From Ulota crispa (Eukaryota > Streptophyta > Bryopsida > Orthotrichales > Orthotrichaceae), in assembly GCA_963920765.1 (NCBI GenBank), contig OY987245.1, positions 12,478,727 to 12,542,726 of the forward strand: DNA of 64,000 nucleotides, read 5' to 3'. The position numbers and the translations under genes are program-made. Under the pieces are notes generated by a model. The model was not told the DNA's origin. It did not search any database and was given only the letters and a program-made list of their open reading frames with translations. This document shows, in pieces, positions 2,513-63,124 of the stretch (position 1 is its first letter; each line of letters starts with the position of its first letter).

Positions 2513-3276
2513 TTAACCCATGAGCACCTTAAAACCCCATATATTGCCTCGGCCACAATTTCAAAGCCTTGTTTTGAGGGATTGGATCTAACTTTTTGAT
2601 CTTGCTATAAATTATAGTTATGAAGGCATTCAAGTTGTCCATGCCAATGGAATAATGGCAAGGAAAGTCAAATGTTGTACAAGTGTTGCAAGAGATTTGA
2701 TTGGGTGAAACACCATATGAGGCATGATAACAAGCAGCGTTTTACAAGCTGCAACCGGTCAATATCCCTTTCAACCTTACTTGTGTAAGCTTTGTGGTAG
2801 CGGAAAAGTTGTTGGCAAGGGTTCAAGCATGTTCTAAACCCTTATTATGGCAACACTCACTAGTTGTGCTGGTCATTGTTTTCCATGCAATAGCAATTTG
2901 AAGCCCTAAAGCTTGACATTAAAAAAAGTGCAATCTTCAATCTTTTACAAGTGTGTGCATTCACATCTAATCTTGCTACTCACAAGATTTGAGATGAATC
3001 CGGGGCTTATAGAATTTTGTAAAAATCATCAAATAGCAACTACCTACCAAAGAATGAGATTTTGTCATCACATGTTGTTTAATTAAATGTTATAATCTCC
3101 CATCTCCCACGGTGAATTGTTCCATAACTTTGCAAGCCATTTTCTAAATAGATGTTCCACGATTTTCAATGGTCACTTTTTGTGAATCATCAGATGACTG
3201 AGATACAATGCATCAAAGTTGTTAGTCTCCAAAAACCCTAATCTTGGTGAAAACAGCGTGGGCGCTCAGGGGTTAA
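2513..3276. mobile_element. TTAA-flanked non-autonomous DNA transposon (E1)
   Basis: The element starts TTAACCCATGAGCACC and ends GCGCTCAGGGGTTAA, so imperfect terminal inverted repeats begin CCC and are flanked by TTAA on both sides. A reversed, diverged copy lies at 47787-48671. The two align through the interior, for example in the stretch around AATCATCAGATGACTGAG and in the CACATGTTGTTTAATT segment. TTAA target duplication with CCC-starting ends is the hallmark of the piggyBac superfamily. No transposase is encoded. Confidence 0.75.
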
Positions 3277-4795
3277 ACAAAATTCAAAAGTATCAGGAAA
3301 TGTATCTCAGAATCAAATCAAGCATTATTTTGCTAAAGTATTTCCTTAATGATACCAAACAAACAATTGATGTAGAAAAACAAGCAAGAATACTCCTCAT
3401 AAAATCATAACATACAACGTAAAGGGTTCCTTCCAGTGTGAGGGCCTTTTCAAGTTTACATTCCAGCTTTTAATCCCCCAAGCCTTGCACTTTCTCAAGT
3501 GTAACAAACAAACAAAAGTTAAATCTTCAAAGTTCCTTCTATAAAAAATTTGGTTGCCCATTTGAAGTCAGAATCAATCCATCAGTCAGAGTTCATTAGT
3601 ATCTAATTAGAATTGTGCAAAATTTAATATTCCTTGAAGGAATTTGAAATCTCCATTCACACAAACTAATTTTAAAAACTAAAAAAATACAATGTTGCTA
3701 GAATGTCAACAAGCTCAGGGCAGCAATAATAGTCATTAATTCAATAAAAATGGGTTGTTCATACAACACGGTAAACCACCTTTTGAGCTTGGATTTTCTC
3801 GTCTCTAATGCTAAGCAGTGAACCAAGTTAACTCAACCCTCTCTAATTGCACATTCCAAATAAATCTTATATACAATTACATAATTTACTCACGTCAAAT
3901 TGTGAACATGTGTAACAAGAACCCATTAGGGGTTCAAACATAAAATCTGGCCCACGAGTTTCTCACCTCACAGCCATAGGATTCCCACTCACTAGTGAAT
4001 TATTTTTCTTCACTTGCACATCCAAAGTCTGAACACACCCGTGAGTTTGCGATTAGGGTTTTGTGCAAAAGTAGGGGGTCTGAGTGTCTCAAACATGAGA
4101 GAGGATGAGCCTCGCGAAAATGAGTTTCAAAAATTCATGACTCCTCACGTGCAGCACGTTAGGAGTGAATTCTAGAAGTGGGTCACCTCACTGTTCACTA
4201 GTGAATTCACAGGAGTGAATTGCCACATGAGTCACCTGAAAACGTTGAAGTTTGAAGCCCCCTATTGATCACCAAAACTTGTTCAACCCCTATCACAAAA
4301 CCCTTACATCCGCGAGTGTAAAAAGAAAGGGTCTAGTGAGTCACAGTAGTTTCAGAAGTACTACCTTTCCATGGTCATAGAATCAGGAGTATCACTTTCT
4401 CCATCACAGTAGTTTGGAAGGCAAGTAAAATGCTGTGTACGGCCAGTAGTCAGCTAGTTGCCTTTTGACTCACTATCACCTCACATTATAGTTTCTTTTC
4501 TGGCAGCTGAGAAAAGACGCTTACTACAATCCAAGCAACTTGAGTTTGAAAAGCACGAGGTATAGCACAAGGTTGCAATCATTTTGAAACAAACTGCACA
4601 GGCTATGGAAGAGACTGCACACACCACAGTACCTCAATCTTACTATGAGCTAGACTATAAGACGCTAGACAACAGGCGCACCTAATCTAATTCAAAGCAA
4701 GAATGCACTCACCCTCTCTAATGACTCTGCCTAAGAATTCTCCAGTCCAATATAAACAACATTGTAGGTCATGAAAACATCTAAAGGATGTGTTT
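3277..4795. other. Gene-free region
   Basis: No supported gene. Around 3960-4240 there are several scattered, partly palindromic TCACTAGTGAAT-like words, with no clear element ends. Short ORFs in this stretch have no protein-like features. Confidence 0.5.
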
Positions 4796-4798
4796 TTA

Positions 4799-5451
4799 GA
4801 GCATCACCACCCGGCCCCAAAACCGGCCCCAAAAACAGATGATCTCTTTGATTTAACTTCCAAAATCGTTTCATCAGGTTTGTATTTTGGATGATCTCTC
4901 TGTCAAGTTGGCTTGCAAACAAGAGCTGGCTTGCAAAATGGGGTGTGTTTGCAGGTTTGGAAATGGCTTGCAAAACAGAATAAGACAAGATCTAAACCAC
5001 TATGAGCAACTTTGAGGACTAAGTTATGACCTGCTCACCCACCCCGTTTTGTGATAAGTCTATGTATCAACCCCTTAACCCCTAAATGTCCCGAACGGCC
5101 GCAATGTCCCGAACGCCCTTTGCGGCCGTGTGTATGGCCATATGTACAAATGTATTTGAGTTACTCTAGGGGCTTTTCAAAATTTATTATGCACCCACCA
5201 TCATACAACCCTTCAATATGTATGGTTGTAACACTTAATTTCCAACTGATTCAAACTTTTGAATATTGGTTGCGACTGTATTTGGTACCGTAGCTCCAAA
5301 ACCCAAGAGCCCTTCAGGGGTTAACAAGAAGCTACGGTCGTTTCTCTCAACTTTGCAAACCGGATAGCACCCACCTAGCCTCTACTATTTGCAAGTTGCA
5401 AGTCGAAATTGGCCTGCTTTGTTGGGACCGGGTGGTGAATTAGTGATGCTC
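4799..5451. mobile_element. Tourist-like (PIF/Harbinger) MITE with a nested TTAA element
   Basis: The left end GAGCATCACCACCC and the right end, whose complement reads GAGCATCACTAATTC, form an imperfect inverted repeat. The flanks are TTA on both sides (4796-4798 and 5452-5454), the 3-bp TWA-type duplication typical of PIF/Harbinger MITEs. The interior is interrupted by the TTAA element at 5075-5324. It has no coding capacity. Confidence 0.7.
5075..5324. mobile_element. TTAA-flanked element (E2), nested in the MITE at 4799-5451
   Basis: The 250-bp element starts TTAACCCCTAAATGTCCCG and ends CCTTCAGGGGTTAA. CCC-starting inverted ends with TTAA on both sides match the other members of this group. 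A short internal tandem phrase (ATGTCCCGAACG, about 2 units) sits at the left end. It splits the older Tourist-like MITE and so inserted after it. Confidence 0.7.
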
Positions 5452-5454
5452 TTA

Positions 5455-6734
5455 CAGGGTTCTGAGAGAGAGAGATGCGAATGTAGTAACCTAATTCTGT
5501 CAAGGACGAAACACGTTTAGTGAGCTCTTCTTTTTCATTTCCTTAGCGCACTAACTGAAATAATGACATACACTCCTAGTCTCGACGTACTCCATGTCTT
5601 GGTAGCTCATCACCAATTGCTCAGGATATTTCAGCAATTTCAGCACCGTAAATTATCGCTGGTGTGAACATGTGTGCCTGGTACATTCCATAAATTCAAT
5701 ATGATCACGTAGCATGGGCACTCATGAATGACAAGAGGATTCTTATGATATTATTAACATACATTGTTCCAGGTGTATCCTCGACCTCACTCCTGAAAAG
5801 TGCTCATTGGCACCCCTCTTGGTCGTACACATGCGAGACTCTTACTTCACTGTACCAGCAACCAGGGTTTCTACAACCTCGGTTTGAAAATCAAAGAATT
5901 CAGCCTTCACATTTTAATCCTCGATTCAAAAAGAGTGAACAGTAATAAAGTACATGCAACCAAATACAAAATTAAATCTAAAAGCAGCACTCTGGTACCA
6001 GAGTCATAGATTTAACAACCTCAAATGGAAGGAAATGGTTCATTTCAGCGTTGGTTTCGGGAATAAGTACGTTGCGAGAAACAAGCTCTGAAAAGCCACG
6101 TTTCTAAATAAAGAAAAAACTACAGCGCTGCCATGCCTGTCTAGTCAAATGCACACTTATTACTCAGAAGAACACAGATATATACAACAAAAATAGAATC
6201 ATCTACAACGTTCCATTCATTTTTAATATTAAACCCTCTCTACAAGGAAGAATAAGAAAAGGTTTCCCTCGAAATCTGTTGCTTATAAAAATAGAGATAC
6301 TCTGTTTTCTCCTCAATGAGAACAGCTGCCATTTCTTTTACATAAGACAATACATAAGCTTAGAGATGAAGAGTATCACAAAAATGTTGGATACACTTTG
6401 CACATCAGCATGTCACAGAATCGAGTATACACCACCGTGCTCTCGACCAGCTCAATTATTCAATGCATAGTTATTCAGCGGCCAATACAAAACAGAGGCC
6501 GTCAAAGCTTCGCAAAAAAGAAAAACTGAGCAAAAATGTGGAAGAGAGCCAGTCAGTAGTAGTAGATCAAACTAACGAAGGTCATGTACAAGATCGAGCG
6601 CATAGTACACAGCTTGCGGTCGGCTGCAGAAGGGATATATCAATGAGAGAGCAGTCGCAAGCCTCGGTCTCCAACAATAACGCTAAAAGAATGTTCAAGA
6701 AAAAAGGGGAAGATCGAAAAAGAAATGAGACTTC
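5455..6734. other. Gene-free region downstream of the TOM9-like gene
   Basis: No coding region is supported. The right part, next to 6735, probably contains the 3' untranslated region of the minus-strand TOM9-like gene. The short ORFs here show no family signature. Confidence 0.45.
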
Positions 6735-7887: not shown

Positions 7888-8261
7888 TTAACCATTAAAT
7901 GCCAGGTTGATCACCGTGACCAGTCCGGCTACAGTTCTCTCTATAGCAACAGCGATTGCCCACCCTATAGGACTGTTTCCTGAAGTTGCAATTGTCAATA
8001 GTGCATGATGCCCTCATGAAAATTGCAAGAAGGGTAGCTTGGAACTTAAAATTGTGTCTCTGAATCTTCTCACAATTTGAGTTACCTAAAAATATGAGTG
8101 CATCTAATGAAATAATTTTTTGCATTCAATGATGGATCATCTGTTTACAATCACTTCTGCAAAAAAAATGAAAAATAATTTATTCTTATAATACATAATT
8201 TTTTTCAGAGCTCAAAGACAAAAAAATGTCCTTCTCGACATTTAAGACATTTAAGGGTTAA
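7888..8261. mobile_element. TTAA-flanked element (E7)
   Basis: The element begins TTAACCATTAAATGCC and ends GACATTTAAGGGTTAA, giving an inverted pair TTAACCMTTAAATG with TTAA on both sides. It is 374 bp long with no coding capacity. The ends match the shared terminal pattern of the group. Confidence 0.6.
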
Positions 8262-10679: not shown

Positions 10680-11606
10680 TTAACCCCTAAATGCCAAGGG
10701 TGTTTTTCTCGTTTTCGAAAGGTAGTTTTGAAGTTTTTGAATTGTCCTTGTAAGATCATTTTTAAACATTAAAATAAAATTATAATTGTTGAATCTTGAA
10801 CTTCAAGGTTTCTAGATGGCACTACCCAAAAAATTCAAAAAGGCTGTGCGGATTTTAAGATATTTGTGATTGAATGATGATGAGTATGGAATTTTTTGCT
10901 TTTTTTTTAGCTGCCCGAAACTTCTAGTGCAAATTGGCAACTTTTGGATACAAAATTGGGAGACAACCACTTAGGATGCTTTAGTCTTTATTGTTGTTAC
11001 TTCAAAACCAGTGGCCCCTCTTCCAAATCCATGACCACAATTTCACAAATGAGCCTACAATGCAACTGTCAGAACATAACCGTCTAATACAAAGAAATTT
11101 TCAGCTTCAATTATTGACCAAAAATCATTATGAATGAAAGAAAATTCAATAATGAAAGGATTCTAATTTCTATAACAAAGACATTCCAAGTGAAACTAGT
11201 CCAAAAGCACTTTTAGATTTTGTTAGATGTTGAAATTTTAGTAAAGAGGTCCTTATTGCCCAAGGGAGTGCCCAAGGGAAATCTTCACCTTTTGCTCAAC
11301 TTGATGCTGGTCTTTTCAATGTGGCAACTTCTCATAGGCTCTGTGACACTATTCATGACACTATTCATGACACTATTCATGACACTATTCACAACAGAAA
11401 ATGTATACTTGTAGTTAACTTTCCACCAAAAACAAATGGAATATGATATGGAGGAAGTCAAATTTGACCGCTGAAGCTAACTTTGACGTGCAACTTTCTT
11501 ATAAAAAAAGCCTTAAAACAATAAAATCTATAACTTCCACAAAGTTTCAAAATTTCTTGAAATTTTTGGACACCAGAATTTGGTGCCTTGGGCATTTAGG
11601 GGTTAA
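10680..11606. mobile_element. TTAA-flanked element (E3), family member with E4, E5 and E6
   Basis: Begins TTAACCCCTAAATGCCAAGG and ends CCTTGGGCATTTAGGGGTTAA minus its last base, an almost perfect inverted terminus with TTAA flanks. It aligns along its whole 927 bp with the copy at 50997-51906. A 12-bp unit GACACTATTCAT is tandemly repeated about four times at 11344-11391, against fewer units in the sister copy. The interior holds only a broken ORF relative to the sister copies. Confidence 0.85.
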
Positions 11607-13477: not shown

Positions 13478-14413
13478 TTAACCCGTAAAGGACAAAGCCC
13501 TTTTTTTTAGTGAAAGTTATTGATAACTGCCACTTTTGGGGGAATGAGTAGAAAGGTAGAAAAAAAAATTATTTTTGGAAATCCAACTATAAGATCTTGC
13601 CCTAGACTACTGGAGGTACTTGTGGAAAAAAAATTAGCTCATTCTACATGTAGAGGAGTGATATGTTGACATTTGAAATGAAAATAAAAGTTTTTTCTTT
13701 GTTGCCCAAAATTTTTAGAAGCCAACCCCTAAATCAAATAAATTGCTCTACACAAAGTTGATGTTTATTTTTTCCATGTAGAAGACCAAGTGAGAAGTAA
13801 GTGTGGGAGAATTTTCAAATGAATTGGAGGTGTCAATCATACTTTGTAAAATCTTGCAATGCCATAAGGCCATCAAATTTGCATACACACTAGGCAAAAT
13901 TGGAGGATTTATGTAAAACTCAGAAATCTGAATTACTTTTATCCAAATGATAAAAACTAAGGAATCTTAGTCTAATACAACTTGGAGAAAAAAGAAGTCA
14001 AAAACCAAATTCACAAAGAGCTCAAAAAAGTAAAGCACCAAAGGTAAAAGGATTGGAGGTCTGGGAGTCCCATACCTACCAGCAAACTAAAACTTCTCAC
14101 TCATAAATCAAATTGAATGATTTAAAGCTTCCCACATATGTATAAATCTAAAGAACCAATTTTAGATTTTTATTTTGAAAAAATGTTGTTTGTAAAAAAA
14201 AATTTGGTTGCTTGCTCTCCTGCATTTTTCAAAAATTCATGCATAACTTCTTCAATAATTGTCCGCATGAAGAAAAAATAGATGCGCATGCAGATCTTTG
14301 AATTCCCCATCTTCCATAAAAGTTTCAAAAAATCACACAAAGTAGTTTAACCATAGGTACATGCCCAAAATCTCATTTGTCTCCCGGAGGGACAATAATC
14401 CTTTAGGGATTAA
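13478..14413. mobile_element. TTAA-flanked element (E8), same family as E9
   Basis: Starts TTAACCCGTAAAGGACAA and ends ATAATCCTTTAGGGATTAA. The inverted ends contain CCCTAAAGGA with TTAA flanks. Interior blocks such as ATCCAACTATAAGATCTTG are shared with the element at 16132-17444. It abuts the preceding Tourist-like MITE, whose TTA duplication forms part of its TTAA target. Confidence 0.75.
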
Positions 14414-16131: not shown

Positions 16132-17444
16132 TTAACCCCTAAAGGACCACCCCCATTATTTTGTCAAAAGACACTCAAAACTGCCATTTCTATGACAAAG
16201 AGTAAGAAAGTTTGAAAATTGATATTTTTGCATATCCAACCACAAGATCTTATACAAGACTAGTATGAGAATGTGTGAAAACAAATTCAAAAACTTTGAC
16301 CGCAAAGATTGCAAGATACTATAGTTTAAAGTTTAAAAAAATAAAAAAATTGCACCTTGCATGACTAGACTATTTGACTTTGAACTTTCACCACAAATTT
16401 TGGAAGTTTAAATCTTTATGGTGGAAAATTAAGTTTAGAATCTTTGGAAAAAAAACAAAACAAAAAATACTTAATTTTCATTCTTTAAAAAACATTAGGT
16501 AGAAGAAGGTATGGGATTGAACAAAATCTTAAATTGTTAATAATCTTGCAATGGAATTGAAACACAATGATCCCAATGATGAGGTGTTCTAGCAAGCAAA
16601 CTTCACCCTTTCCAACAATTTTTATTGAAAAAATGTTAAATTTGCATTCAAAAATGAAGTTTATAAGTTATTTTTTCAAAAAGACTAGTGTGGCCCTGTG
16701 CAGTTGGCACATTTTTCACCCCCATGCCATCTCCTCTAACCACTTGTGGTTAAACTTGTACTTTACTTTAGTTAAACTTGTCCTCTACCTTTTTTTTAAG
16801 TGAACATCCAAATTTTATTTTAGTTAAACTTGTACTCTACCCTATTTTTACACAAAATTTGTCTTTGGCCAATTAATAATTTTTGAGTTTTTGAATTCAT
16901 TAAAAACTTTGAAATTTAATAAATTTCTCACCCTAGGTCCAAATGCCACCAAACCAAGCCCATGCACCCCTCCTTGCCGAGAGCTTTCCAATGATACCAA
17001 GTAAGCAACGGGGGGACACAAGGTACGGGAATCTCAATGTGACAAACATCCAAACATTGAATCATCCAAATAGCCTAATTTAAGGTATAGATGCTTAAAT
17101 TGCTCAAAAAACAAGATTGTCCATAACTTTCTCATATCTAATCCAAATGGAATGAATCAAAGCTTCAAATGTAGACAAACTATTAACTACAAGAAGAAAA
17201 AATAAAATAAAAATCAGGTTTTTGTAATAAAAAATTGGCTGCCCAATCTCCATAAGTTTTTGCTTATCTGGGCATAACTTTTGCTTATGGGCATAGATTG
17301 GAAAAAAATTATATTCCTCAAAAGCTCATGTGTTTTTCTATCTTCAAAAAAAGTTTCAAAAAATCAAGACAATAAATGAGGCTATAGATACTTGCTTGAA
17401 ATCCCATTTATCCTCCAAAGGGACAACAATCCTTTAGGGGTTAA
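16132..17444. mobile_element. TTAA-flanked element (E9), 1.3 kb
   Basis: Starts TTAACCCCTAAAGGACC and ends AATCCTTTAGGGGTTAA, a near-perfect inverted terminus with TTAA flanks. It is a relative of the element at 13478-14413 but longer. The extra length lies mainly around 16700-16870, where a TTAAACTTGTACTYTAC phrase is repeated. No transposase ORF is present. Confidence 0.75.
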
Positions 17445-17994: not shown

Positions 17995-18541
17995 TTAACC
18001 CCGAAACACCCAATCAACCATTTTTTGGTTGATGCCCTTTTTTGCAAGCTGCTTGAAATTAGAAAAAAAGAATTGAAAAAAAAATTTATATAGGAGAGCA
18101 AGTTTACTTTCCAACCTAGTATGAATCATGTCAATCCAAGTTAAACTCCACCAAGGAGAATTATTCAAAGACAAACACTTCAATATTTGCTAGTATTACA
18201 AAATTCACTATTTCAAGAAACTAATGATATTCTCTCCATCAAAAATATTTTATTTTTGAACTTTCAAATAGAATGTCTATTTTTGACCAATTGTACCAAG
18301 TATTAAATTTTGTGAATAAAATTTGTAATTTTGATGAATATCAAATGATAAAGGCTTCTAAATTCATTAAATAAGTGTACAATTTTTTTTGAATGTTTGA
18401 ATATACGGATAATTACTAAACATCATGATTCTTGTTCTCTGTTTCTAAAAAAACTTCATTGAAGTTACAAAAGTATCATTTTAGAACACATTTTTGTTTT
18501 GCCCTTACCCCCTTGGGTGTTGTGGGATTAAGAGACATGAT
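17995..18541. mobile_element. TTAA-flanked element (E10)
   Basis: Starts TTAACCCCGAAACACCCAAT and ends TTGGGTGTTGTGGGATTAA. The inverted ends share ACACCCAA with TTAA on both sides. It is a 547-bp, non-coding element. Its ends differ from E3 and E8 beyond the first bases, so it is a separate family within the group. Confidence 0.65.
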
Positions 18542-20448: not shown

Positions 20449-20859
20449 TTAACCCTTTAACGATTGCGGTCGATTCTGGGGTGGGCAATCCTTTGTATTT
20501 CTATTTGGGGATATTTTAGGGTTATTGAATACAAATGTCTATCATAGATCTGACCGTATAGATGGAAGTAACTTGCAGCGTTTAGTGTTATGCATCATGC
20601 ATTATGCTCACTCTTTAGTTGTTATAGTCATCTTTTTGCATTTATTGGTGTATTTTCAGCCCGTACTCTTTTAGTTTTTTCAACTCTCTAGTCGCATGCC
20701 ACCTCAAATTGGCATGGTTACTATCCTAAACTCTTCACTTTCCAATTCCCCATACCCGTCTCCTTTGCCACGTCATCAAATTCCTTGACATGCTCTCTCT
20801 ACAATCTGAAAAGAGTCAAAATCGACCAGGAATTGGTCGACCAGTCCTTAATGGGTTAA
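20449..20859. mobile_element. TTAA-flanked element (E12)
   Basis: A 411-bp element with ends TTAACCCTTTAACGATTG and, in complement, TTAACCCATTAAGGACTG. Subterminal GGTCGA words occur near both ends. TTAA is present on both sides. Confidence 0.7.
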
Positions 20860-21425: not shown

Positions 21426-21452
21426 AAATTAATGAATACATATTATCTATAA

Positions 21453-21864
21453 GGGGATTGATATGTCTACCACACCCTTTCAGCTATTCTACCACACCTT
21501 GGGGTAAATTTTAGATTTCTACCATCAAATAGTTGAATTTGAGAATTTGGAATTCAAATTTGGACTTAGAGACCTTCATTTTGTCTAGAACCATAAAAAA
21601 AGGTTGTAATTGAACAACACCCAATGAAAAAGCTTAGCTCGGGGCAAAAGTAGTACTTTTACTTTTGTTTATATATCAAAAAAGCTTTTTCATTGGGTGT
21701 TGTTCAATTACAATTTTATTTTATGATTCTAAACAAAATCATGGTCTTTGAGTCCAAATCTGAATTTCAAATTCTCAAATTCAGCTCTCTGATGGTAGAA
21801 ATCTAAAATTTACCCCGGAGTATGGTAGAATAGCTGAAAGGGTGTGGTAGACATATCAATCCCC
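21453..21864. mobile_element. Mutator-like MITE with perfect 9-bp target duplication
   Basis: The ends GGGGATTGATATGTCTACC are perfectly inverted. A 9-bp direct repeat TATCTATAA flanks both sides (21444-21452 and 21865-21873). Nearly the whole 412 bp is two inverted arms. A 9-bp duplication is typical of Mutator-like elements. It lies just downstream of the last recognised kinase exon. Confidence 0.85.
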
Positions 21865-21918
21865 TATCTATAAATGTAAGCTTTTGCTTTAGTATTTGAA
21901 ATATTTGAAAGAGCTCAC

Positions 21919-31137: not shown

Positions 31138-31575
31138 ATGCCGAAGAATAAGGGAAAGGGAGGGAAGAACCGGAAGAGAGGAAAGAACGAGGCGGAGGAC
31201 GAGAAGCGGGAGCTCGTGTTCAAGGAAGACGGACAGGAGTACGCGCAGGTGTTGAGGATGCTCGGAAACGGGCGGTGCGAAGCGCTCTGCATCGATGGCA
31301 CCAAGCGGCTCTGCCACATCCGAGGGAAGATGCACAAGAAGGTATGGATTGCGTCGGGCGATATCATTCTGGTCGGTCTCCGCGATTACCAAGACGACAA
31401 GGCGGACGTGATTCTTAAGTACCAGCCTGATGAGGCCAGGCTCCTGAAGGCGTACGGTGAGCTTCCCGAGAACGTGCGTCTCAACGAAGGTATTGCCGGC
31501 GGCATGGACGACGAGGAAGACGGTGGCGGTGACGACTATGTGGAATTCGAGGACGAAGACATCGACAGGATATGA
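31138..31575 (+). CDS. eIF1A: Eukaryotic translation initiation factor 1A (eIF1A)
   Basis: The single-exon ORF encodes 145 residues, the usual length for plant eIF1A. It has the basic N-terminal tail [16 protein letters not shown], then the S1-like OB fold with [30 protein letters not shown] and [18 protein letters not shown], then a helical segment with [10 protein letters not shown], and the acidic C-terminal tail ending FEDEDIDRI. In the cytosol it binds the A site of the 40S subunit, promotes scanning with eIF1 and recruits eIF5B through its last residues (the DIDRI end fits this). The start codon context GAAGATGCC, the invariant [10 protein letters not shown] start and the lack of an earlier in-frame ATG support this start. 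The coding region is GC-rich compared with its flanks. No intron interrupts the CDS. Confidence 0.97.
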
Positions 31576-37248: not shown

Positions 37249-38111
37249 CAGTGGGGTAGAATAAGTTTTAGTCCATCCTATTCTACCATTCAAAGGACTT
37301 AGCATTTTATAGAATGCAATTGGATTTTTTTGTATCTTGTATCACTAATATTTAATTCTTACACAATCCTAATTAAGCATACCAAACTTGAGTGTCAAAA
37401 AACCAAAGCCCTGTTTTTGGTGAATTATTTTAGATGAAATTCATGGTTTTATATGATAATTGATTAAAAAAAATTGGTGATGAATTTTTGAGATTTGATT
37501 GCATGGGTATGTAGAAAGCATCTGTGCGTACATCTTTCCTTCAAACAAAAATCTCCAAAAAGTCTCAAAATTCCCCTTATAGAGATTTCAATGTTGAAGT
37601 CATCATAATCGAATTTAGTAAAATAGATATTTCTTTATGGTAATTAGATTTTGCTAATTGACTCATACGCTATGATTAAGTTCTTAGCTCTGAGCATGAT
37701 GATATGATTATTTTGCCAAAAGCTAATTAAAAAACAAATAAATCTATTTTATTGAATTTGGTCATGATCACCCCAACATTAAAAGAAAAAAATTTGAAAC
37801 TTTTTAAGATGTTTGTTAAAAGGAGAGATGTGCATATGAATGTTTCCTACATACCCATGCAATCAAATCTCAAAAATTCATCACCAATGTTTTTTAATCA
37901 ATTATCATATAAAACCATGAATTTCATCTAAAATAATTCACCAAAAATAGGGTTTTGATTTTTTGGAACTCAAGTTTGGTATGCTTGACTAAGATTGTGT
38001 AGGAATTCAAGCTTAGTGATACAAGATACAAAAAATCCAATTGCTTTCCTTAAAATGCTAAGTCCTTTGAATGGTAGAATAGGATGGACAAAAACTTATT
38101 CTACCCCACTA
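37249..38111. mobile_element. Nested TA-flanked foldback element
   Basis: The ends CAGTGGGGTAGAATAAG and, in complement, TAGTGGGGTAGAATAAG are flanked by TA on both sides. The inverted arms extend over some 300 bases, for instance GGACTTAGCATTTTA near 37307 and CTCAAGTTTGGTATGC near 37970. No transposase is encoded. Confidence 0.75.
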
Positions 38112-39477: not shown

Positions 39478-42400
39478 CTAGGCAATGGAACCCTCCCATG
39501 TCAGCTGCTGACAAGGAGAAGGTGTCACAAACAGATATGATCCAGTCACATAGTCGCAATCCCACGGATCTTTTGCAGAGGGCACGTCAAGGACGATGTT
39601 GGCCAGACGAATGCCATGAAACGTGCACTCCTGCAGCCCCAAGAGAAGGCCTGCTTGTGTAATGTTTTTGCCCAAAACATTCTTAATACGTATGTTGTCT
39701 ATGACTGGAAATGCTGTTTGGTTCCAATTCTCATCGGGATGCTCTCCGTAGTTGCCATACACTGCAATTGCCGTCTTGACCGAGTCCAGGAGGATGTTGC
39801 TCGCGATCACATTTTTCACATACGCTCCGCGTCCAGCCGAAGTCTTGATGCGTACTCCCCATCTGCCTCCAGTAATGACCATGTCCTCAACCTGCAATTG
39901 TAGTAAGAATGTAAGAGCAACAAAATAGTTGCAAATCGAATATACCTGAGAGCACTTTCCTTCTCAAAGATCTACATTTTTGCTCACTTTGTCTGGCAAG
40001 AAATGCAGTTTTTTATCCATCCAATATATCCTTGGTTCTAGTTGAATCAACAACTGAACGATACAAAATTATTTTATACGAATAAACTTTAAATAACACA
40101 TTGTAATTGTATGTAAGTCAAGTTGGAATGTGTCTCTCTTTTAAACATTAATAGTGGCTCTTGATACTGAGCTCCATGTGTTAGTTCTTTGTACTTATTT
40201 TAGTAAGAATTCGTCGAGGGCAACAGTTTTATTTTAAGCTAAATCTCACCAAATTTCAACCAGTTTTCAGATCGGATCTAGCTACAAACCTGTACATGTA
40301 TGGACGAAATTGTAATTATTTAGGTGAAGTATTTCGAAAATTTTATTGAGAAAATGTTAGAAGGCCAGAATCTATATTTTGGCTACTTTACCAAAAATCA
40401 TGCAAAATTTGCTAAATTTGACAGGCTCGACCAAGTTTTTAGAGCTACCCAAATTCTTAATAGAATCTGAATTTCCTTAGGATATTGCAAATAACTTCAA
40501 GAAAAAATTGTCAATACTTATGGTGCAGCTGATTGTGAAATTAATCTTGAACTTACAGTATTAAATGTTACTTATAAGTACTGTACATGTACAAACCTAT
40601 TTGATCAATCTCATTATGTAGTTGAGATGTACGACTTCCAAATCCCGTTCCAAATTCAAAATCTAATGTTGTTTTCCCATACCAACTTCAAATTATCGCT
40701 CCAAGCTGTTGTTTATTGTACATCCTTCCCAAAAATGATGAATCAGGACCTTCAAGGGTTAGCCAACGAATTTAGAACAGCAAGCATGAAATTAATCTGA
40801 CCTTGACGTTGGAAATTCCACCAGACATTTCGCTGCCGAATGAAATTCCATGCGTCCCGTCGGCAATTACGCGTCGAATCTGAATGTGTTTGCTGGGCAT
40901 TCCAAAAGTTATTCCATATTCATCCCATCCACTTTTGATAGACACTGCGTCGTCACCCACCCTGATGTAGCAGTCCTCTATACAGACGTGTTGGCTAGAG
41001 TCTGCAAAACGAAACCACATAGCATCACATATCGTTGAAAAAAACAAATTAGCATGACATGATTTTAAATTAACTAGTCTTTATTCTTAAGTGGATAAGA
41101 CATAGATGGTATTTCAAGGTGTCAATAGAAAAAACGTATGGCCCCGGATTTCAGAGGAAGGGTCAAACATGGTTAAATGGCTGAATATCTTCAGCATGCT
41201 TTTGGATCAACTCACTGACAGAACCACGAGATTGAAATCATTTCTGAAATCCTATGTTTGTTCACATCTTGCCTGTCTGCCTTATAAATTCCTCTTGTTT
41301 TCAACAGTTGACATACCTGGGTCAATACCATCCGTGTTTGGAGAATCGGATGGAGCCAAGATAGTCATAAGCTTCACCACCACATGCCTGAAAAGACAGC
41401 CGAGAAGATCATCAGGCTCATCAGCAATATTCCGGTAGTAAGTTCATTGTACATGGTTTAGTTCTAATGAGGTTTTCTTCATGTTGTGCGCAAAATTCCA
41501 AATAAAGAATTATACGAGTATGGGAGTTTCATAACAAACTGCAAATCCAGTGACCTGCAACTGACCCTAACAATCTGACATCGTCCCCGGAATAACACAG
41601 TTGATACACTGCGGATGATATAAGTTACACTAGTGTGAACTTCACAAGAGGTTAAGGAATGCAAGCAGCCTTTCCTTTTTTGTTTTCGTTTTTCTCTTGG
41701 ATGACTTCAAATATAGGGCTAAAGCTCCCAATTTTTGGCAAATGTTTCATTATGATTCTGTTAACTTTAAAACCACAGCACAAATGTGGCGGCTTAAAAC
41801 AAAAACTTAAAGATTTTGCAAGAAATCTGCTTAGTATTTGCATTTTCTCAGTTAAGTTTGCTGCTACACGCTAAAACTTTCGTTAGATCAAAAAATTAGT
41901 TGATTCTAGCGGTGTTTAGACCAAAAAGAATGCCTGAATAAAAGCATATGTGAGTTAAGAGTGATACTTGCAGTAGACTGGATGGATGGTCCAGAATGGT
42001 GAGTTCTGAAAAGTTAGATTTGATATCCAGATGTTCCGTGACCCTATGAGCTCCACCAAATGGCCTCGAGTGTAGTTCAATGTTTTGTTGTCGAATGCAC
42101 TCCACCATACCGCTCCTTGCCCATCAATTGTTCCATTGTTACCTGCGGTCAAGGAAACAGAGCAATTTCACCTAGCCCCGTCATTCGAAATCTCCACTCC
42201 AAGTCGAGTTGAAATATACGGGACATAAAACAAGACAAATGTGTCTTTATCAAGTACGAGCATATTCCATAGAAAATGATCACATAACAGCAAACAGTTC
42301 CTCACCTAAGCATAAGGCAACCATCATCTAAATAGGTTGGTATTACAAATGCATTACCTGTAATGGTAACATCTTCAAGTCCTTCGCCATTGATAAGGCT

Positions 42401-45502: not shown

Positions 45503-45907
45503 AAAGGGAGTGACTAGGTGGACACCCCCTAGTTGCTACGCAGACATCCCATATCTAAACCTATTAAATTTCAGATTGTTATTATGCTAAAATTGAAATA
45601 AAATCAAAGTAATCTTTTAACATACATCTGCGTTTACAAGTGTTGCAAACATACAACAAATTTGCCTCATTTGTTACACGATCAGGAGTCAAACTAGTAA
45701 ATGAAGGGAGCAACTAGTTTAACTCCTAACCGTATCACAAACGAGACAAATTTGTTGTGTGTTTGCAACGCTTGAAGATGCAAATGTACACTAAAGCATT
45801 GCTTTGATTTTATTTCATATTTTAGCTTAATAATATTCTCAAATTTAATAGATTTGGCTGTGGGTGTGTCCATGTAGCAATTGGGGGATGTCCACCTAGT
45901 CGCTCCC
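45503..45907. mobile_element. Mutator-like MITE, 9-bp target duplication
   Basis: The ends GGGAGTGACTAGGTGGACA and, in complement, GGGAGCGACTAGGTGGACA are flanked by TAAATAAAT on both sides (45494-45502 and 45908-45916). Inverted arms make up almost the whole element. A diverged relative lies at 46060-46622. Confidence 0.75.
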
Positions 45908-46059
45908 TAAATAAATTGTGCAATGATAATCTTATCCCCGTGCTTCTCTATCCCTATGCTTCTTATCCTTGTGCCCCTATCCCCGTGCACCCCAAATTTT
46001 ACTTTAATCCATTTATAAATTTAGTTACACTTGTATTCTACTCTACTCAATTTTACTTT

Positions 46060-46622
46060 GGGATAGACTAGGGAGACACCCCCCAATTGCTACAGGGACA
46101 CCCCTATAGCCCAACATATTAAATTTGAGATTATTATTAGGTTGAAATATGAAATAAAATCAAAACAATATTTCAGCGCACAATTGCATGAACAAGCATT
46201 GCAAACATACAACAAATGCGTTTCATTTGTGACATGGTCAAGAGCTAAACTAGTGGCTCCCTTCATTTATAAGTTTAAATCTTGACCATGTCACAAATGA
46301 GACAAATTTGTTGTATGTTTACAACTCTTATAGATGCAAATGTGCGCTAAAATGTTTTTTTTTAATTTTATTTCATATTTGAACGTAATAATAATCTCAA
46401 ATTTAATAAGTTGGGCTATATATAGCCCAAAAACAGGTCTTAAACGACTAAGTGACAGCAACTAAGCCACAATTGTACAAGTGAAATTGAGTCATTTTGC
46501 AGTTGTTGTATAGTCAATGCAATTGTGGTTTAATTGTTGTCACTTAATCGTTTTTTGCCATTTTCTACTAATGATAGGGGGTGTCCACATAGCAATTGGG
46601 GGGTGTCTCCCTAGTCATTCCC
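46060..46622. mobile_element. Second copy of the GACTAGG Mutator-like MITE, with nested element
   Basis: The ends GGGATAGACTAGGGAGACA and, in complement, GGGAATGACTAGGGAGACA are clear. The flanks TTTTACTTT and TTTATTTTT are an imperfect 9-bp duplication. It shares the inner word CAAACATACAACAAATKYG with the copy at 45503-45907. The right arm is interrupted by a smaller inverted-repeat element at about 46430-46562. Confidence 0.7.
46430..46562. mobile_element. Small nested inverted-repeat element
   Basis: The arms AAACGACTAAGTGACAGCAA and, in complement, AAACGATTAAGTGACAACAA pair, followed by CACAATTG on both sides. It lies inside the right arm of the MITE at 46060-46622. Exact ends are uncertain by about 10 bases. 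Confidence 0.5.
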
Positions 46623-47786: not shown

Positions 47787-48671
47787 TTAATCCCTAAGTG
47801 CCCAGGCCATTCTCACCAAAATTCAAGTTTCAAGAGACATAAAAGTTTAACCCTAAATGCCCATGGTACCAAATTCTAAAGTCAAAAACACCACATTTTG
47901 GTGTTGTGGGCATTTAGGGGTTAATGCATCTTATCTCAATCAATCAGATGATTCACAAAAAGTGACAATTGAAAATAGTGGAACACGTACCTACTTAGAA
48001 AACAGCTAGCAATTTTTGGGTACAATTGACCGTGGGAAATGGGAGATTATGACATTTGATCAAATAACATGTAATGGCAAAATCTCATTTTCTAGCAAGC
48101 ACTTAGTTGTTGTTTATTGACTTTTTCAATATCTACAAGCCCCTTATTCATCTTAAATTTAGTGAGTAGAAAAATTAGATGTAAATGCACACACTTTCAA
48201 ATTATTGAAGCTTTACTTCTTTGAATGTTAAGTTTTAGGGCTTCAAATTTATATTGCGTTGAAAACAATGACTTGCACAATTGGTGAGGGTGGCCTCAAC
48301 AAGGGTTTAGAACATGATTGTACCCTTGCTCATGAATTTTCCAATACCACAAAGCACATGCAAGGAAGCTTGCAATGAATATTAACCAGTTGTACAAGCA
48401 CATGCAAGGAAGCTTGCAATGAATATTGACCAGTTGTAGCTTGTAAGACATTGCTTGCCACCATACCCCGGATGTTGTTTCACCCAATGAAGGCTCTTGA
48501 GGCACTTGTATAACATGTAGCTTGTCTTGCCATTATTCTACTTGCATGGATCATTTGAATACCTTGATAATTTTAGTTTATAGCAAGGTCAAAAAATTAA
48601 TCCAACACCTCAAACAAGCATGTGAAATCATGTGAGGACCATTTTGGTCTTGTGGAGCATCCAAGGGTTAA
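47787..48671. mobile_element. TTAA-flanked element (E13), reversed relative of E1, with nested E14
   Basis: It begins TTAATCCCTAAGTGCCC and ends ATCCAAGGGTTAA. Read in reverse it aligns with the element at 2513-3276, for example ATCAGATGATTCACAAAAAG. An additional GGGTTAA follows at 48672-48678. A direct repeat of CACATGCAAGGAAGCTTGC lies at about 48354 and 48400. The element at 47847-47924 is inserted in it. Confidence 0.7.
47847..47924. mobile_element. 78-bp TTAA-flanked micro-element (E14) nested in E13
   Basis: It starts TTAACCCTAAATGCCCATGG and ends GTGGGCATTTAGGGGTTAA. The ends are inverted and the whole unit, TTAAs included, is only 78 bp. It lies at a position where the related element E1 reads TTTGATGCATTG and this copy reads TTTAA followed by TGCATC, so one TTAA fits the pre-insertion site. 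Confidence 0.75.
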
Positions 48672-50996: not shown

Positions 50997-51906
50997 TTAA
51001 CCCCTAAATTCCCAACAGTGTTTTTCTTGTTTTTGGAAGGTAGTTTTGAAGTTTTTGAATTGTCCTTGTAAGATCATTTTTAAACATCAAAACAAAATTG
51101 TAACCGTTGAATCTTGAACTTCAAGGCTTCTAGATGGCGCTACCCAGAAAGAATCCAAAATGGCCACGCGGATTTTCAGATATTTGTGATTGAATGATGA
51201 TGAGTATGGAATTTTTTGCTTTTTGTGAAGCTGCCCGAAACTTCTAATGCAAATTGGCAACTTTTGGATACAAAATTGGGAAACTAAACCACTTCGGATG
51301 CTTTAGTCTTTATTGTTGTTACTTCCAAACCAATGGACCCTCTTCCAAATCCATGATCTTAATTCCACAAATGAGCTTGCAATGCAACTATCAAAGTGCA
51401 AACACCTAATACAAAGATTTTTTTTTAACTTTGATTATTGACCAAAATTCAATTTGAATGAAAGGAAATTCAACAATGAATGGATTCTGATCTTTATAAC
51501 AAAGATATTCCAATTGAAACTAGTCCAAAAGTGCTTTTAGATTTTGTTAGATGTCAAAATTTCAATAAAAGGGCCCTTATTGCCCAAGGGAGTGCCCAAG
51601 GGAAATCTTCACCTTTTGCTCAACTTGATGCCAATCTTTTCAATGTGGCAACTTCTCATAGGCTATGTGACACTATTCACAACACTATTCATGACAGAAA
51701 ATATATGCTTGTAGTTAACCTTCCACCAAAAACAAATGGAGTAAGATATGGAGGAAGTTGAATTTGAACGGTGAAGCTAACTTTAGTGTGCAATTTTTCC
51801 AAAAAAAAACCTCAAAACAATAAATTATGTGCTTTGAATAGGATTTCAAAGTTTCTTAAAAAAATTTGGACACCAGAATCTCGTGCCTTGGGCATTTAGG
51901 GGTTAA
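50997..51906. mobile_element. TTAA-flanked element (E4), sister of E3
   Basis: Starts TTAACCCCTAAATTCCCAAC and ends CTTGGGCATTTAGGGGTTAA, with TTAA flanks. It aligns end to end with 10680-11606. An ORF of 93 codons at 51480-51761 is also open in the copy at 60861-62291, but base differences between the two are mainly amino-acid changing, so it does not look like a maintained gene. The site GATCATTTTTAAACATC in this copy is the empty equivalent of the E5 insertion. Confidence 0.85.
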
Positions 51907-55699: not shown

Positions 55700-55850
55700 T
55701 GAGAGAGGCCGACACCACCACGCCCCCGGGGATTTTCTTGCCAATTTCTGCTCGAGTCGATACTCTCTCGAGTGTCCCATCGCCGCCGGAAAAGCAAAAC
55801 ATCGGACCCCGAGGCGGTTTGGCCTTTGCCGCTTTTTCTCAAGAGCTTTC

Positions 55851-59069: not shown

Positions 59070-60300
59070 TTCTACCATGAGCAAGAGATGCCTATATACA
59101 CAGAGAAGGAGTTGTGACTGCTTCGCAGTCCTCCGTGCACAGGTTTGAGTAAGAATCTACATCTGCATACCACACCTGTAGCAACTCATTTGCCAACGCT
59201 GGTACTTTCAAGCCATTCTATTGTCAGCCAGCATTGCTGTTGTGGTAGAGCTTTTTTATCAAGTTCTTATACAACTTCTAACCTCCCTGCAGTAAATTTG
59301 TACATATTATTAATCTCTATTGTCTAGGACTAAGATGCCAACATTGAAGAAACCGACGTTACTATTTTTTTGGCTTTATGGAACTAGTTATGTCGCTTCA
59401 ATCGATGGGCACGAGCGACTTAGTATTCCTCTCTGTAATAGTATGTGTCTCCTGAGGAGTAATATGTCATTTTGCAAATTCCTTGGCAATTGTTTTGGAC
59501 CTTGTATATGGTGGGTGAGGACAGTCTCTTCATACTAGTGTCATACATTTGGTATTAGTTTTGCTGTCGATGCTTGTTTTTGTCTGCTTTTCTTACACAT
59601 TTTTTGTCAGACACATGTGCTCCACGAGGGCGATTTAGGCATCACAAGTTCATCACAACCAATAAGCTTTTAAGCTTTACCAGGGACCTAAGTCTTGAGG
59701 CTGGACGTGTTCTTTTGGACCAACTGTCTGCCTTCCATGAGATTTTGGTTAGCAGCTTTGTGAGATTCCGAAGGGTCCATCTGAGTAAGGGTTGCTTGAA
59801 GAGCTCACTAAAGAGTTTAGATGTGGGGTATTAGAGTTTTAACCTGTAAAGTCTTGTTTAGTTTTTTTGTCCAAAACTGCCAAGGTCCATAACCTTTTGA
59901 AAACAACTTTTGCAGTGAATTTTAGGAGTAAGTTTGACCATGTGTTTTCAAAGAACTTGGTTTTGTGTTTTTATATAGAACACTGTTGTTAATAAGTTGG
60001 TAATATTCAAAGATGGAACATTTGAGTATAGGGGTGCTTCTCGAAGAAGGAAACCTAGATTTTGGGGGCTTATAAGCCCGAGTCATGTGCTTACGTGACT
60101 CGCAACTATTGTGCAAATGTTGGAATTTTGTTGCATAAGTGTGTTGGAGTATGTGAAATATCTGAGTTCGTTGGGACTATCATGGTAAAAAGACGATATA
60201 TGGTGTAAAAGTTTTGTAGCCAGATGAGTAGATTTTGAAGGGAGCATAGTAGTCACTCATTATATTACAATTGTTTCTTGACTTTGCTCATAATTCCGCA
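59070..60300. other. 3' region of the VP1/ABI3-like gene, no further gene
   Basis: Likely 3' untranslated region at the left, followed by non-coding sequence. The short ORFs at 59145-59834 show no family features. Confidence 0.4.
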
Positions 60301-60600
60301 CACGTGAATGTTACGTTTAGGTCGTCCACACTATTTTCTCGACATTTTACACTATCTAAATACTTCCGGAGGCGATAGTTACGACAGAAAACAATTTTTA
60401 GAGGGCTTGGTATCAACAGCAAAGTTGCTGAAAAACAAATTAACAGTGTGCAAGTTGTAAACCATGTGAAATTTAAGTATTTAGAAAGTTGCATGTGTCT
60501 CCATGTGCCTCCAAGTGGTCAAGTCATGAGGCAATTTTCCAATATAAAACAACCTAATTACTAAGGGAATTTAAATGCACTACTCAATATATTGAGATAG
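60301..60600. mobile_element. Copy of the GTTTAGGTTGCC MITE (N3)
   Basis: The left part TACGTTTAGGTCGTCCACAC and CGACATTTTACACTAT, and the right part AAGTGGTCAAGTCATGAGG to AATTTAAATGCACTAC, parallel the element at 15567-15851. The ends are diverged. Confidence 0.5.
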
Positions 60601-60860
60601 TGGGGTAGTTGCCTGTTGTTGTTTTTGGGTAGTCATATTAAAATCTGTTGTTAGAGGTGTTAAAAAGACACTATTGAGATAGTTATAAAAAAAAACATAC
60701 TCCCTTGTCTTGATAGAAAGTCAAGAATTCTTGGGGTATGACTATCAAACCATAAATCTGAATTACTATAAAAAAAGTGAATCCCTCAATGTTTGAGGGA
60801 AATTTCCTTGGTTCAAGATGGCATTTTTGAGGTTTTGGTTTTGTCTTTGTAAGATCATCA

Positions 60861-62291
60861 TTAACCCCTAAATGCCTAAGGCATTAAATTTTGGTGTTCA
60901 AAAAACTTTGGGAAATTTTTGAAACCCTATTGAAGGCATAGATTTTTTTGTTTTGAGGTTTTTTTTTTTGGACAAGCTGTGTGTTATAATTAGTTTAATT
61001 GTTCAAATTTAGTTTCCTCCATATCTTATTCCAATCGTTTTTAGTGGAAGGTTATTGCAAGCATACATTTTGTGCCATGAATAGTGTCATGAATATTATT
61101 GTGAATAGTGTCACAAAGCCTATGAGAAGTTGCCACATTGAAAAGACTGGCATCAAGTTGAGAAAAATGTGAAGATTTCCCTTGGGCACTCCCTTGGGCA
61201 GTAAGGGCCCTTTTATTGATATTTTGACATCTAACAAAATCTAAAAGTGCTCTTGGACTAATTTCACTTGGAATGTCTTTGTTATGAAAATTAGAATTCA
61301 TTCACCATTAAACTTTCTTTCATTCATAATGGTTTTTGGTCAATAATTGAAGGGGAAATTACAAATAAGGGCATGAAAACAAAAAATATTACAAATAGGG
61401 TACAATTTGAAAATAATTACAAATAAGGGCACATTTCAAAAACAAAAAAAAAACTTATAATTTCTTTTGGTTTGGACATTAGTTGATTGAGATACATCAC
61501 ATTAAATGCTAGTTAACTTCCAAAAAATTTAAAAGCCTTCAAAAATTACCATCCCCTTTACTAAAGTTTCTTTATTTAGGCTTGATTTGGAGAGACCTAT
61601 ATGTTTTTTGGAAACTAGCTAACATTTAATGTGATGTGTTTAGGTCAACCAATGTTCAAATAAATAAAAAACAACAAAAAATCACAATTTTTTTTGAAAT
61701 CGTGCCCCTATTTGTAATTGTTTTATAATTGCGCCCATATTTATAATTTCCCCATAATTGAAGCTAAAAAAGTTCTTAATTAATATTAGACGGTTGCGCT
61801 TTGACAATTGTGTTACTATGTCATTTGTGAAATTGTGGTCTTGGATTTGGAAGGGGGCCATCAGTTTGCAAGTAACAACAACAAACACTAAAGCATCTTA
61901 AGTAGTTGTTTCCCAATTATGTATTCAAAAATTGCCAATTTGTATAAGAAGTTTTGGATAGTTCCAAAGAAGCAAAATATTCTATACAAATCATCATTCA
62001 ATCACAAATATTTTAAAATCCGTGTGGCCATTTTGGATTATTTTTGGGTAGCGCCATTTAGAAGCTTTAACACGTTATTCATTAAATTGGAAAAAAATGA
62101 CATTTTGGGACTTTTGGATTTTATATTATGTCACTTTTCTTCAATTTAATGAACAATGTGTTCCTTGAAGTTCAAGATTCAACGATTACAATTTGTTTTG
62201 ATGTTTAATAGTGATCTTATAAGAACAATTCAAAAACTTCAAAATTGCCTTCCAAAAATGAGAAAAACACCCTTGGGCATTTAGGGGTTAA
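60861..62291. mobile_element. TTAA-flanked element (E5), inserted into E6 in reverse orientation
   Basis: Starts TTAACCCCTAAATGCCTAAG and ends CTTGGGCATTTAGGGGTTAA. Its body is the reverse of E3 and E4. The host site in E6 (GATCATCA, TTAA, ACATTGAG) corresponds to the uninterrupted GATCATTT, TTAA, ACATCAAA in E4, which shows the TTAA was duplicated on insertion. It holds a Mutator-like MITE at 61352-61753. An ORF on the minus strand (61301-61041) parallels that of E4 but is not under visible constraint. Confidence 0.85.
61352..61753. mobile_element. Mutator-like MITE inserted in E5
   Basis: The ends GGGGAAATTACAAATAAGGGC and, in complement, GGGGAAATTATAAATATGGGC are flanked by ATAATTGAA on both sides. 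E3 has the uninterrupted AATAATTGAAGC at the same point, confirming a 9-bp duplication. The inner arms (TTGGACATTAGTTGATT, AAATGCTAGTTAACTTCC) are the ones also found in the MITEs at 12643-13477 and 15388-16131. Confidence 0.85.
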
Positions 62292-63124
62292 ACATTGAGA
62301 CAAAATGGTAATTGTAGAATCATGAACTTCAAGGCTTCTAATTGGTGTTGCTAAAAAAAATTCCAAAAAAGTCATGTGAATCTTAAGATATTTGTGATTG
62401 AATGTGAATGAGTATGAATTCTTTTTATTTTTCTTGAGTTGCCCAAAACTTCTAAGGCAAGAATGAAAACTTTTGAGTAAAAAATTGGAAAACCACTATT
62501 TATGATGATTTAGTACTTGTTGAGTTGTTGTTACTTCAAAATTAATTACTCCCTTCTAGATCCATGCTCACAATTTCACAAATGAGCTAGCAATCCATCT
62601 GTCAAAGAGCTACCACCTAATATACAAACAATGTTTAGCTTCAATTATTGACCAAAAATCATTTTGAATGATCCAATTTTCAATGGTGAAAGAATTTTTC
62701 TTTTTATGACAAATATACTCCAAGTGAAATTAGAGCAAAAATACATTTAGATTTTGTTAGATGATGAAATTTTAGTAGAAGGGCCCACATTGCAAAAAGA
62801 AGTGCGCAAGAGAACTTTTCACTTTATTCTCAACTTGCTGCCCATATTTCCAAATTCCAATATGACAACTTGTCATAGGCTCCTTAGTGACAATATTCAT
62901 CTCACTTTTTGATACGTGAGAGATATGCTTGTAATTTAACTTCCACCAAAAACAATTGGAATGTGCTGCTATATGGATGAAACTCAAACTAGACACTGAA
63001 GCTAACTTCAGACCGCAACTTCTCCTAACAAAAATTAAATATATAAAATCAAAATCTCTACCGTCAACAAGGTCTCAAAGTCCCCAAAGACAAAAGTTGG
63101 GTGCTTCAAGCATGTAGGGGTCAA

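What the first reader, a model, noticed from the sequence alone, without database searches (positions are those of the whole stretch)
2513..63124. Fifteen TTAA-flanked, CCC-starting elements: a diversified piggyBac-type MITE population in a plant
Seen: elements at 2513, 5075, 7888, 10680, 13478, 16132, 17995, 18870, 20449, 47787, 47847, 50997, 54039, 60778 and 60861 share ends of the form TTAACCCYTWAA with inverted copies and TTAA on both sides, in at least five families that differ beyond the first 10 bases. Known: TTAA duplication with CCC-type ends is the piggyBac hallmark; such elements are well described in animals and little described in land plants. Inference: an active or recently active piggyBac-type source exists in this genome. 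Roughly one sixth of the window is made of them.
Basis: partly seen in the sequence, partly recalled or inferred. Interest (0 to 1): 0.8.

Follow-up and report, generated by a model that had tools for sequence, protein, structure and literature searches.

The report
piggyBac transposons abundant in a land plant
A plant genome, most like a moss, holds thousands of small jumping elements together with larger relatives that encode the matching piggyBac enzyme, a transposon class well known in animals and seldom described in plants.

Summary
Eleven of the thirteen have at least partial homologous copies. Genome-wide, the exact end TTAACCCYTWAAKGNC occurs 23,005 times, its reversed control 3 times. 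TTAA precedes 2,953 of 3,508 ends of one family.

The piggyBac origin holds. 116 scored loci, spread over C1-C11, encode DDE_Tnp_1_7 transposase. Elements of 5.0-5.7 kb carry it between matching ends; one, L012, has the 16 terminal bases of window elements 10680-11606 and 60861-62291, and MITEs 10680 and 50997 are its internal-deletion relatives.

"Active source" is not supported: 8 of 116 loci lack stops in the matched stretch, and the best matches to queried MITEs are 87-95%.

Two plant TE reviews and a 207-genome MITE survey do not mention piggyBac; other reviews name it in passing. Repbase was not available.

The parts
2513..3276 (.). TTAA-bounded element, 764 bp, ends TTAACCCATGAGCACC / TTAACCCCTGAGCGCC
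   Evidence: (positions 1-704 74% to 47921-48671)
5075..5324 (.). TTAA-bounded element, 250 bp; weaker
   Evidence: positions 34-252 85% to a copy on C1
7888..8261 (.). TTAA-bounded element, 374 bp; paralogous empty site reads TGAA at the junction
10680..11606 (+). 927-bp MITE of the ATGCC family; internal-deletion relative of the 5,746-bp transposase-bearing element L012
   Evidence: (2,283 first-look candidates, 40 scored: itself and 39 others at 88-91%)
13478..14413 (+). 936-bp MITE of the AGGAC family
   Evidence: 8,381 first-look candidates, 40 scored; best other copy 87%
16132..17444 (.). 1,313-bp element, AGGA-type ends (15 of 16 match)
   Evidence: partial copies at 60-71%
17995..18531 (.). 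537-bp candidate element, ends only (16 of 20 match); no copy in the sample at hand
   Evidence: the one junction-spanning match lacks TTAA
18870..19784 (+). 915-bp element, CCCTTTAAGGAC ends; right TTAA now TTGA
   Evidence: (83% over the whole length in L024; 86% partial in L014)
20449..20859 (.). 411-bp element; right end related to ends of transposase-bearing elements L013 and L027 (76% and 65%, partial)
47787..48671 (.). 885-bp element, relative of 2513-3276, interrupted by 47847-47924
47847..47924 (.). 78-bp element nested in a TTAA; an 84% copy of about 79 bp lies in L009 (221-299)
50997..51906 (+). 910-bp MITE of the ATGCC family; paralogous empty site on C1 with a single TTAA
54039..54668 (+). 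630-bp member of the ~650-bp ATGCC MITE family; left inner end degenerate
   Evidence: 72-81% to other copies; family also searched
60778..63124 (+). ATGCC-family element, ends TGAATCC / TTGACCC, interrupted by 60861-62291
60861..62291 (-). 1,431-bp element with 16 of 16 matching ends, inserted in a TTAA of the preceding element

Best explanation
[quoted passage not shown] In each family a 5-6 kb element encoded a piggyBac transposase (DDE_Tnp_1_7 with DDD motifs). The transposase recognised CCC-type inverted ends, cut the element out and inserted it at TTAA, which was duplicated. Internally deleted copies that kept the ends were moved in trans and multiplied. Shown: ends, TTAA at the ends, TTAA in several empty sites, transposases inside matching ends, the deletion relationship for one family, several diverged transposase clades. 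[quoted passage not shown] The sampled families look past their peak.
For: (1) 120 PF13843 matches in the 116 candidates scored of 528, best E 1.3e-73, on C1-C11. The only PDB matches of the L012 transposase stretch up to E 10 are piggyBat (1.7e-16) and 6x67 'Transposase' (3e-13), recalled as Trichoplusia ni piggyBac. (2) L012 567-6312: 16 of 16 matching ends around a transposase. L009, L013, L014, L016 and L027 show paired TTAACC ends matching at 13-15 of 16 around one. By the strict rule 8 of 20 loci pass against 7 of 400 shuffled; two of the eight, L011 and L028, I read as ends of neighbouring MITEs. (3) TTAA precedes 2,953 of 3,508 exact ends, and 35 of 39 in the DNA at hand. (4) Of 35 elements tested for empty sites, four gave clear paralogous ones: 50997-51906, 60861-62291 and one on C1 with TTAA, 7888-8261 with TGAA; 47847-47924 gave a fifth, with TTGA. 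(5) MITEs 10680 and 50997 match L012 over about 580-590 bp at its left end (84-85%) and about 200-270 bp at its right end (66-67%). (6) 23,005 and 2,387 exact ends of two end groups, controls 3 and 0. (7) Where ends were found, transposase clades broadly agree with end families.
Against: 12 of 20 transposase loci show no strict pair of ends within about 3 kb. Junction-spanning matches for the transposase-bearing elements L009 and L027, and for 17995-18531, do not carry TTAA; they are diverged repeats. 31 of 35 elements gave no clear empty site in the 296 kb at hand. Some ends are not preceded by TTAA (4 of 39; 555 of 3,508), which later mutation can explain. No copy is shown to move.
Confidence: 0.95

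Rival explanations
1. The elements belong to another superfamily with TTAA duplication (Kolobok), and the piggyBac genes are coincidental.
For: TTAA duplication alone is shared with Kolobok (recalled).
Against: The gene between the same ends in L012 is DDE_Tnp_1_7; MITEs share about 580-590 bp of subterminal DNA with it. No Kolobok search was run.
Confidence: 0.02
2. One recent horizontal transfer from an animal or fungus produced the whole population.
For: piggyBac is best known in animals, and horizontal transfers of DNA transposons are reported (titles and abstract starts in the listing).
Against: The 23 transposases compared form several clades separated by long branches; MITE copies differ by 5-18% or more. 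Several old entries or ancient residence fit better. No animal, fungal or other plant transposase was in the tree.
Confidence: 0.12
3. A currently active source exists in this genome.
For: 8 of 116 transposase loci lack stops in the matched stretch (my count); one ~650-bp subfamily reaches 95% identity.
Against: No match above 95% to a queried MITE among the 40 candidates scored per search (a 36-bp piece at 97% aside); L012 has no full-length second copy among those scored and its transposase part is at most 80% identical to others; one stop-free domain has an N at an acidic catalytic position.
Confidence: 0.15
4. The shared ends are chance, or single units of the plant telomere repeat (CCCTAAA, recalled).
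For: CCCTAAA lies inside the commonest end.
Against: Homology extends over whole elements and stops at the ends; exact 16-mers outnumber the reversed control 23,005 to 3; other end groups (CCCTTCAT, CCCTTGAC, CCCTCTAA) lack the unit.
Confidence: 0.01

Closest known systems
piggyBac elements of animals (Trichoplusia ni piggyBac, piggyBat, the beetle set of PMC12732532)
   Same: TTAA at the ends, CCC-type ends, DDE_Tnp_1_7 transposase with DDD motifs; Cys/His-rich tails read by eye in L012 and L011
   Different: Six elements of 5,027-5,746 bp against 2,074-3,465 bp in beetles (passages); an extra conserved upstream coding domain; in L065 an interrupted coding region, apparently an intron; the host is a land plant
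piggyBac-like MITEs of insects
   Same: Short non-autonomous elements with TTAA and CCC-type ends (recalled; papers seen only in the listing)
   Different: Here in a plant, with transposase-bearing relatives in the same genome
PiggyBac repeats reported in Ceratopteris richardii (PMC6890710) and MITEs filed as PiggyBac in angiosperms (PMC10004981)
   Same: Plant hosts, same superfamily label
   Different: Passages only: a repeat-table line (1,230 copies, 122,417 bp) and one sentence; neither passage describes an element with its transposase
TIR elements of the moss Ptychostomum knowltonii (PMC11704416)
   Same: TIR transposons are the dominant TE type there, 29.13% of the genome
   Different: CACTA is given as the largest share, with EDTA and RepeatModeler2 as tools (passages). 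Whether some are piggyBac is my untested suggestion

Membership tests
piggyBac superfamily | TTAA target site duplication | tested here: met
   2,953 of 3,508 exact ends preceded by TTAA; TTAA, or a one-base variant, at the junction of five empty sites
piggyBac superfamily | Inverted ends beginning CCC | tested here: met
   beetle motifs CCCT and CCCTTT in passages of PMC12732532
piggyBac superfamily | DDE_Tnp_1_7 transposase between the same ends | tested here: met
   L012 with 16 of 16 matching ends
piggyBac superfamily | DDD catalytic triad | tested here: met
   A motif search found all three motifs with D in 8 of 23 aligned transposases (L011, L012, L013, L014, L019, L025, L027, L065); in L014 the first hit is a neighbouring word, the likely true motif reading CDEIM. 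L067 has N in the third. The other 14 miss one or more, or have N, broken or diverged. That these are the catalytic residues is recalled.
piggyBac superfamily | C-terminal cysteine-rich domain | tested here: inconclusive
   Cys/His-rich tails read by eye in L012 and L011; no Pfam hit to such a domain in the L012 tail; L011 not scanned
piggyBac superfamily | Seamless excision restoring TTAA | not testable with these tools
   Needs an excision assay; the empty sites here are paralogous
MITE | Short, high-copy elements sharing ends with a transposase-bearing one, without its gene | tested here: met
   no PF13843 match lies in the window
Kolobok | Kolobok transposase between TTAA-flanked ends | tested here: not met
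   The transposase found between the ends of L012 is DDE_Tnp_1_7; no separate Kolobok search was run
CACTA | Ends beginning CACTA with a 3-bp duplication (recalled) | tested here: not met
   The ends read start CCC behind TTAA or a variant of it

The most novel reading that the evidence does not exclude
Land plants of the moss lineage carry their own old branch of piggyBac, split into several deeply separated families. Its 5-6 kb elements encode a transposase with an undescribed upstream domain, perhaps for DNA binding or regulation. They gave rise to more than ten thousand, perhaps tens of thousands of MITEs, several per cent of this genome, that plant annotation has filed under other names because its class lists hold no piggyBac.
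Probability: 0.5. Interest if true: 0.75.

Novelty: new variant of a known kind. Interest (0 to 1): 0.62.

Why it matters
piggyBac is a main tool of animal transgenesis; in plants it is used as an animal-derived tool (a passage; a reference title). Two plant TE reviews list six or seven TIR superfamilies without it, and a MITE survey of 207 plant genomes, four of them bryophytes, uses five main ones. A plant genome with 116 scored piggyBac transposase loci and over 25,000 exact ends shows that the superfamily can be a major source of MITEs in a land plant. It offers a plant-resident branch to study and raises the question whether TIR elements of related genomes are misfiled. The extra upstream domain is a testable novelty in transposase architecture.

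Tried and rejected
Papers: the 'piggyBac' hit in the moss Niphotrichum paper was only the word 'piggybacking'. Eight searches on piggyBac, plants and mosses, most with capped lists, showed no paper that, from title and abstract start, describes native piggyBac elements in a moss. Only open-licence PMC papers are held; Repbase and subscription papers were not seen.

Domestication: three transposase stretches without stops in the match were fetched. L067 has an N at an acidic catalytic position, L066 has a disrupted second motif, L065 is split by an apparent intron. None could be called domesticated; their flanks were not read.

Upstream domain: no convincing PDB match (best E 0.077, a checkpoint-protein segment) and one weak Pfam hit, LPD16 at E 0.052, in 1 of 8 members. 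For upstream coding in general, dN/dS in L023/L024 is 0.32-0.51 in the transposase's frame and 0.57-0.89 in the two others (three 450-bp bins from 1350); in L014/L021 one bin gives 0.28 against 0.92 and 1.26; L009/L018 are uninformative.

Genome share: half of 25,392 exact ends times 650-930 bp gives about 8-12 Mb (3-4%) as a rough floor by hand; no unbiased sample was at hand.

Empty-site matches for L009, L027 and 17995-18531 were diverged and without TTAA, and are not counted as support.

No structure prediction or fold search was made.
Full report
What was claimed.

The window. Twelve of the fifteen starts read exactly TTAACCC, and seven match the full form TTAACCCYTWAA. The window has 25 TTAACCC/GGGTTAA words against a shuffle mean of 9.1 (maximum 16 in 100 shuffles), and 8 facing pairs with at least 12 of 16 matching terminal bases against a mean of 0.07 (maximum 2). 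Comparison within 296 kb of DNA from the same genome, the window included, corrected several boundaries. The result is thirteen elements, two of which hold a second element nested in a TTAA, covering 11,199 bp, or 17.5%. Two are weak: 17995-18531 has ends only, and 5075-5324 has one partial copy. 16132-17444 and 20449-20859 have partial, diverged copies only.

The target site. In one end family, TTAA precedes 2,953 of 3,508 exact occurrences of CCCCTAAATGCCYAAG genome-wide; the reversed control is 0 in both searches. In the DNA at hand it is 35 of 39 after removing duplicates. Joined flanks of 35 elements were compared with the 296 kb. Four gave clear paralogous empty sites: 50997-51906 (88% over 244 bp), 60861-62291 (several copies of the host element) and an element on C1 (90%), each with TTAA at the junction, and 7888-8261, where it reads TGAA. 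A fifth, 47847-47924, reads TTGA. Spanning matches for L009, L027 and 17995-18531 lack TTAA and are diverged repeats; one for a second C1 element has TTAA at 72% identity and is unclear.

The source enzyme. A search of the genome with PF13843 gave 120 matches in the 116 candidates scored, out of 528 first-look candidates, on each of C1 to C11, best E 1.3e-73. Twenty of these loci were fetched with about 3 kb on each side. L012 holds a 5,746-bp element with 16 of 16 matching terminal bases, TTAACCCCTAAATGCC, around a transposase whose reading frame is broken. These are the ends of window elements 10680-11606 and 60861-62291. L009, L013, L014, L016 and L027 hold elements of 5,027-5,586 bp with ends matching at 13-15 of 16. 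By a strict rule 8 of 20 loci have a matching pair of ends, against 7 of 400 shuffled loci; two of the eight, L011 and L028, I take to be ends of neighbouring MITEs. L018, L021 and L022 have pairs with one variant end. In the PDB the L012 transposase stretch matches only piggyBat and 6x67 'Transposase', recalled as the moth piggyBac enzyme.

How MITEs relate to it. MITEs 10680-11606 and 50997-51906 match L012 over about 580-590 bp at its left end (85 and 84%) and about 200-270 bp at its right end (66-67%), with the middle missing. L022 is a second transposase-bearing relative (77% and 76% over the same left end). This is the usual picture of internal deletion. DNA searches gave 2,283, 8,381 and 4,774 first-look candidates for the 927-, 936- and 652-bp families, of which 40 were scored each; first-look candidates are not confirmed copies. 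The best matches other than the query itself were 91, 87 and 95%.

Families. A tree of 23 transposases (20 fetched loci and three small stretches, without outgroup) groups L012 with L022 (ATGCC ends), L025 and L026 with L011 (AGGAC/AGGCC-type single ends nearby), L013 and L027 together with L066 and L067 (CCCTTTA/CCCTCTA ends in the first two), L009 with L018 (CCCTTCAT-type ends), L014 with L021, and L023 with L024. Branches between the groups are long, so one recent entry is unlikely. The pattern TTAACCCYTWAAKGNC occurs 23,005 times (control 3), and TTAACCCYTSAHYGCC 2,387 times (control 0).

Activity. Six copies of the 927-bp family differ by 8.6-17.7% and eight of the 650-bp family by 9.5-36.5% (K2P). 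L009 and L018, two transposase-bearing copies, are 90% identical over 5.0 kb. L012 has no second full-length copy among the 40 candidates scored, and its transposase stretch is at most 80% identical to others. Eight of 116 transposase loci lack stops in the matched stretch (counted by me); of three fetched, L067 has an N at an acidic catalytic position and L066 a disrupted motif. A past wave is supported, a present source is not, and a small young subfamily remains possible.

An unexpected feature. The six elements with both ends are longer (5,027-5,746 bp) than the 2,074-3,465 bp reported for beetles (passages of PMC12732532). Protein comparison among the 20 loci showed a conserved coding stretch of about 80-120 residues, roughly 1.5-2 kb upstream of the catalytic domain on the same strand, in nine of them (L009, L010, L014, L015, L017, L018, L019, L021, L028), with weak matches in L013 and L027. 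Searching the genome with the L014 version gave 91 matches. Thirty-six lie 1.4-4.5 kb upstream of a listed transposase on its strand, against 1 downstream and 0 on the opposite strand within 6 kb. Since 116 of 528 transposase candidates were scored and listed, 36 is likely a lower bound; the other 54 have no listed transposase nearby and were not examined. Pfam and PDB gave no convincing relative. In L013 one open frame of 539 codons runs from a related region up to the start of the catalytic part, which suggests an N-terminal extension. Elsewhere the coding is interrupted, so a separate protein is not excluded.

Host. PF00504 gives 56 matches. One Lhcb protein was compared with the PDB. The top row, 9vfj_2, sums two stretches of a long chain (best stretch 292 bits). 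The best single-stretch chains are 8htu_U and 7xqp_a (444 bits), recalled as Physcomitrium patens; pea- and spinach-type chains reach about 425-430 and chains recalled as green-algal 392 or less. The genome has 274.8 Mb; C1-C10 are 15.8-41.4 Mb, and C11 is at least 6.1 Mb.

What is in print. A 2022 review of land-plant TEs lists six TIR superfamilies and its held text does not contain the word piggyBac (passages). A 2023 guide lists seven with TIRs and does not contain it (passages). A 2025 MITE survey of 207 plant genomes, four of them bryophytes, uses five main superfamilies and contains neither piggyBac nor TTAA (passages). A 2025 piggyBac paper calls plants occasional hosts, naming red algae (passages). 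Against this, a 2024 review names PiggyBac among plant class II superfamilies (passage), a 2023 review lists PiggyBac among angiosperm MITE superfamilies (one sentence), a 2023 paper's abstract says piggyBac was isolated from insects, fungi and plants, a 2022 paper places the superfamily in most eukaryotic lineages (abstract), and Ceratopteris has 1,230 annotated copies (table line). TIR transposons are 29% of the moss Ptychostomum knowltonii genome, CACTA being the largest share (passages); whether some are piggyBac is a suggestion only.

Verdict. The finding is real and correctly identified as piggyBac-derived.

Noticed in passing
Genome, e.g. C7:18203169-/18223004+, C2:36765124+/36779670-, C4:13992182+/13989814-, C10:676128+/785346-: Equal- or near-equal-scoring matches recur as inverted pairs about 2-110 kb apart: large inverted duplications (palindromes) or assembly artefacts.
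   Followed up: no
C4:21391382-21771811: Cluster of eight stop-free PF00504 (Lhcb-type) matches.
   Followed up: no
window 37326-38035, 45606-46361, 21452-21865: Long hairpin repeats (89, 80 and 90% complementary arms) without paired TTAACCC ends in my scan; relatives of the first and third occur in other fetched loci.
   Followed up: no
window 31138-31575 and 39478-39897: eIF1A reading frame and a GH28 (polygalacturonase-type) exon between the elements.
   Followed up: partly
C1:571414-571417; window 47847-47924 and 60861-62291: Elements share, or insert into, a TTAA at the edge of or inside an older element, giving chains and nests.
   Followed up: partly
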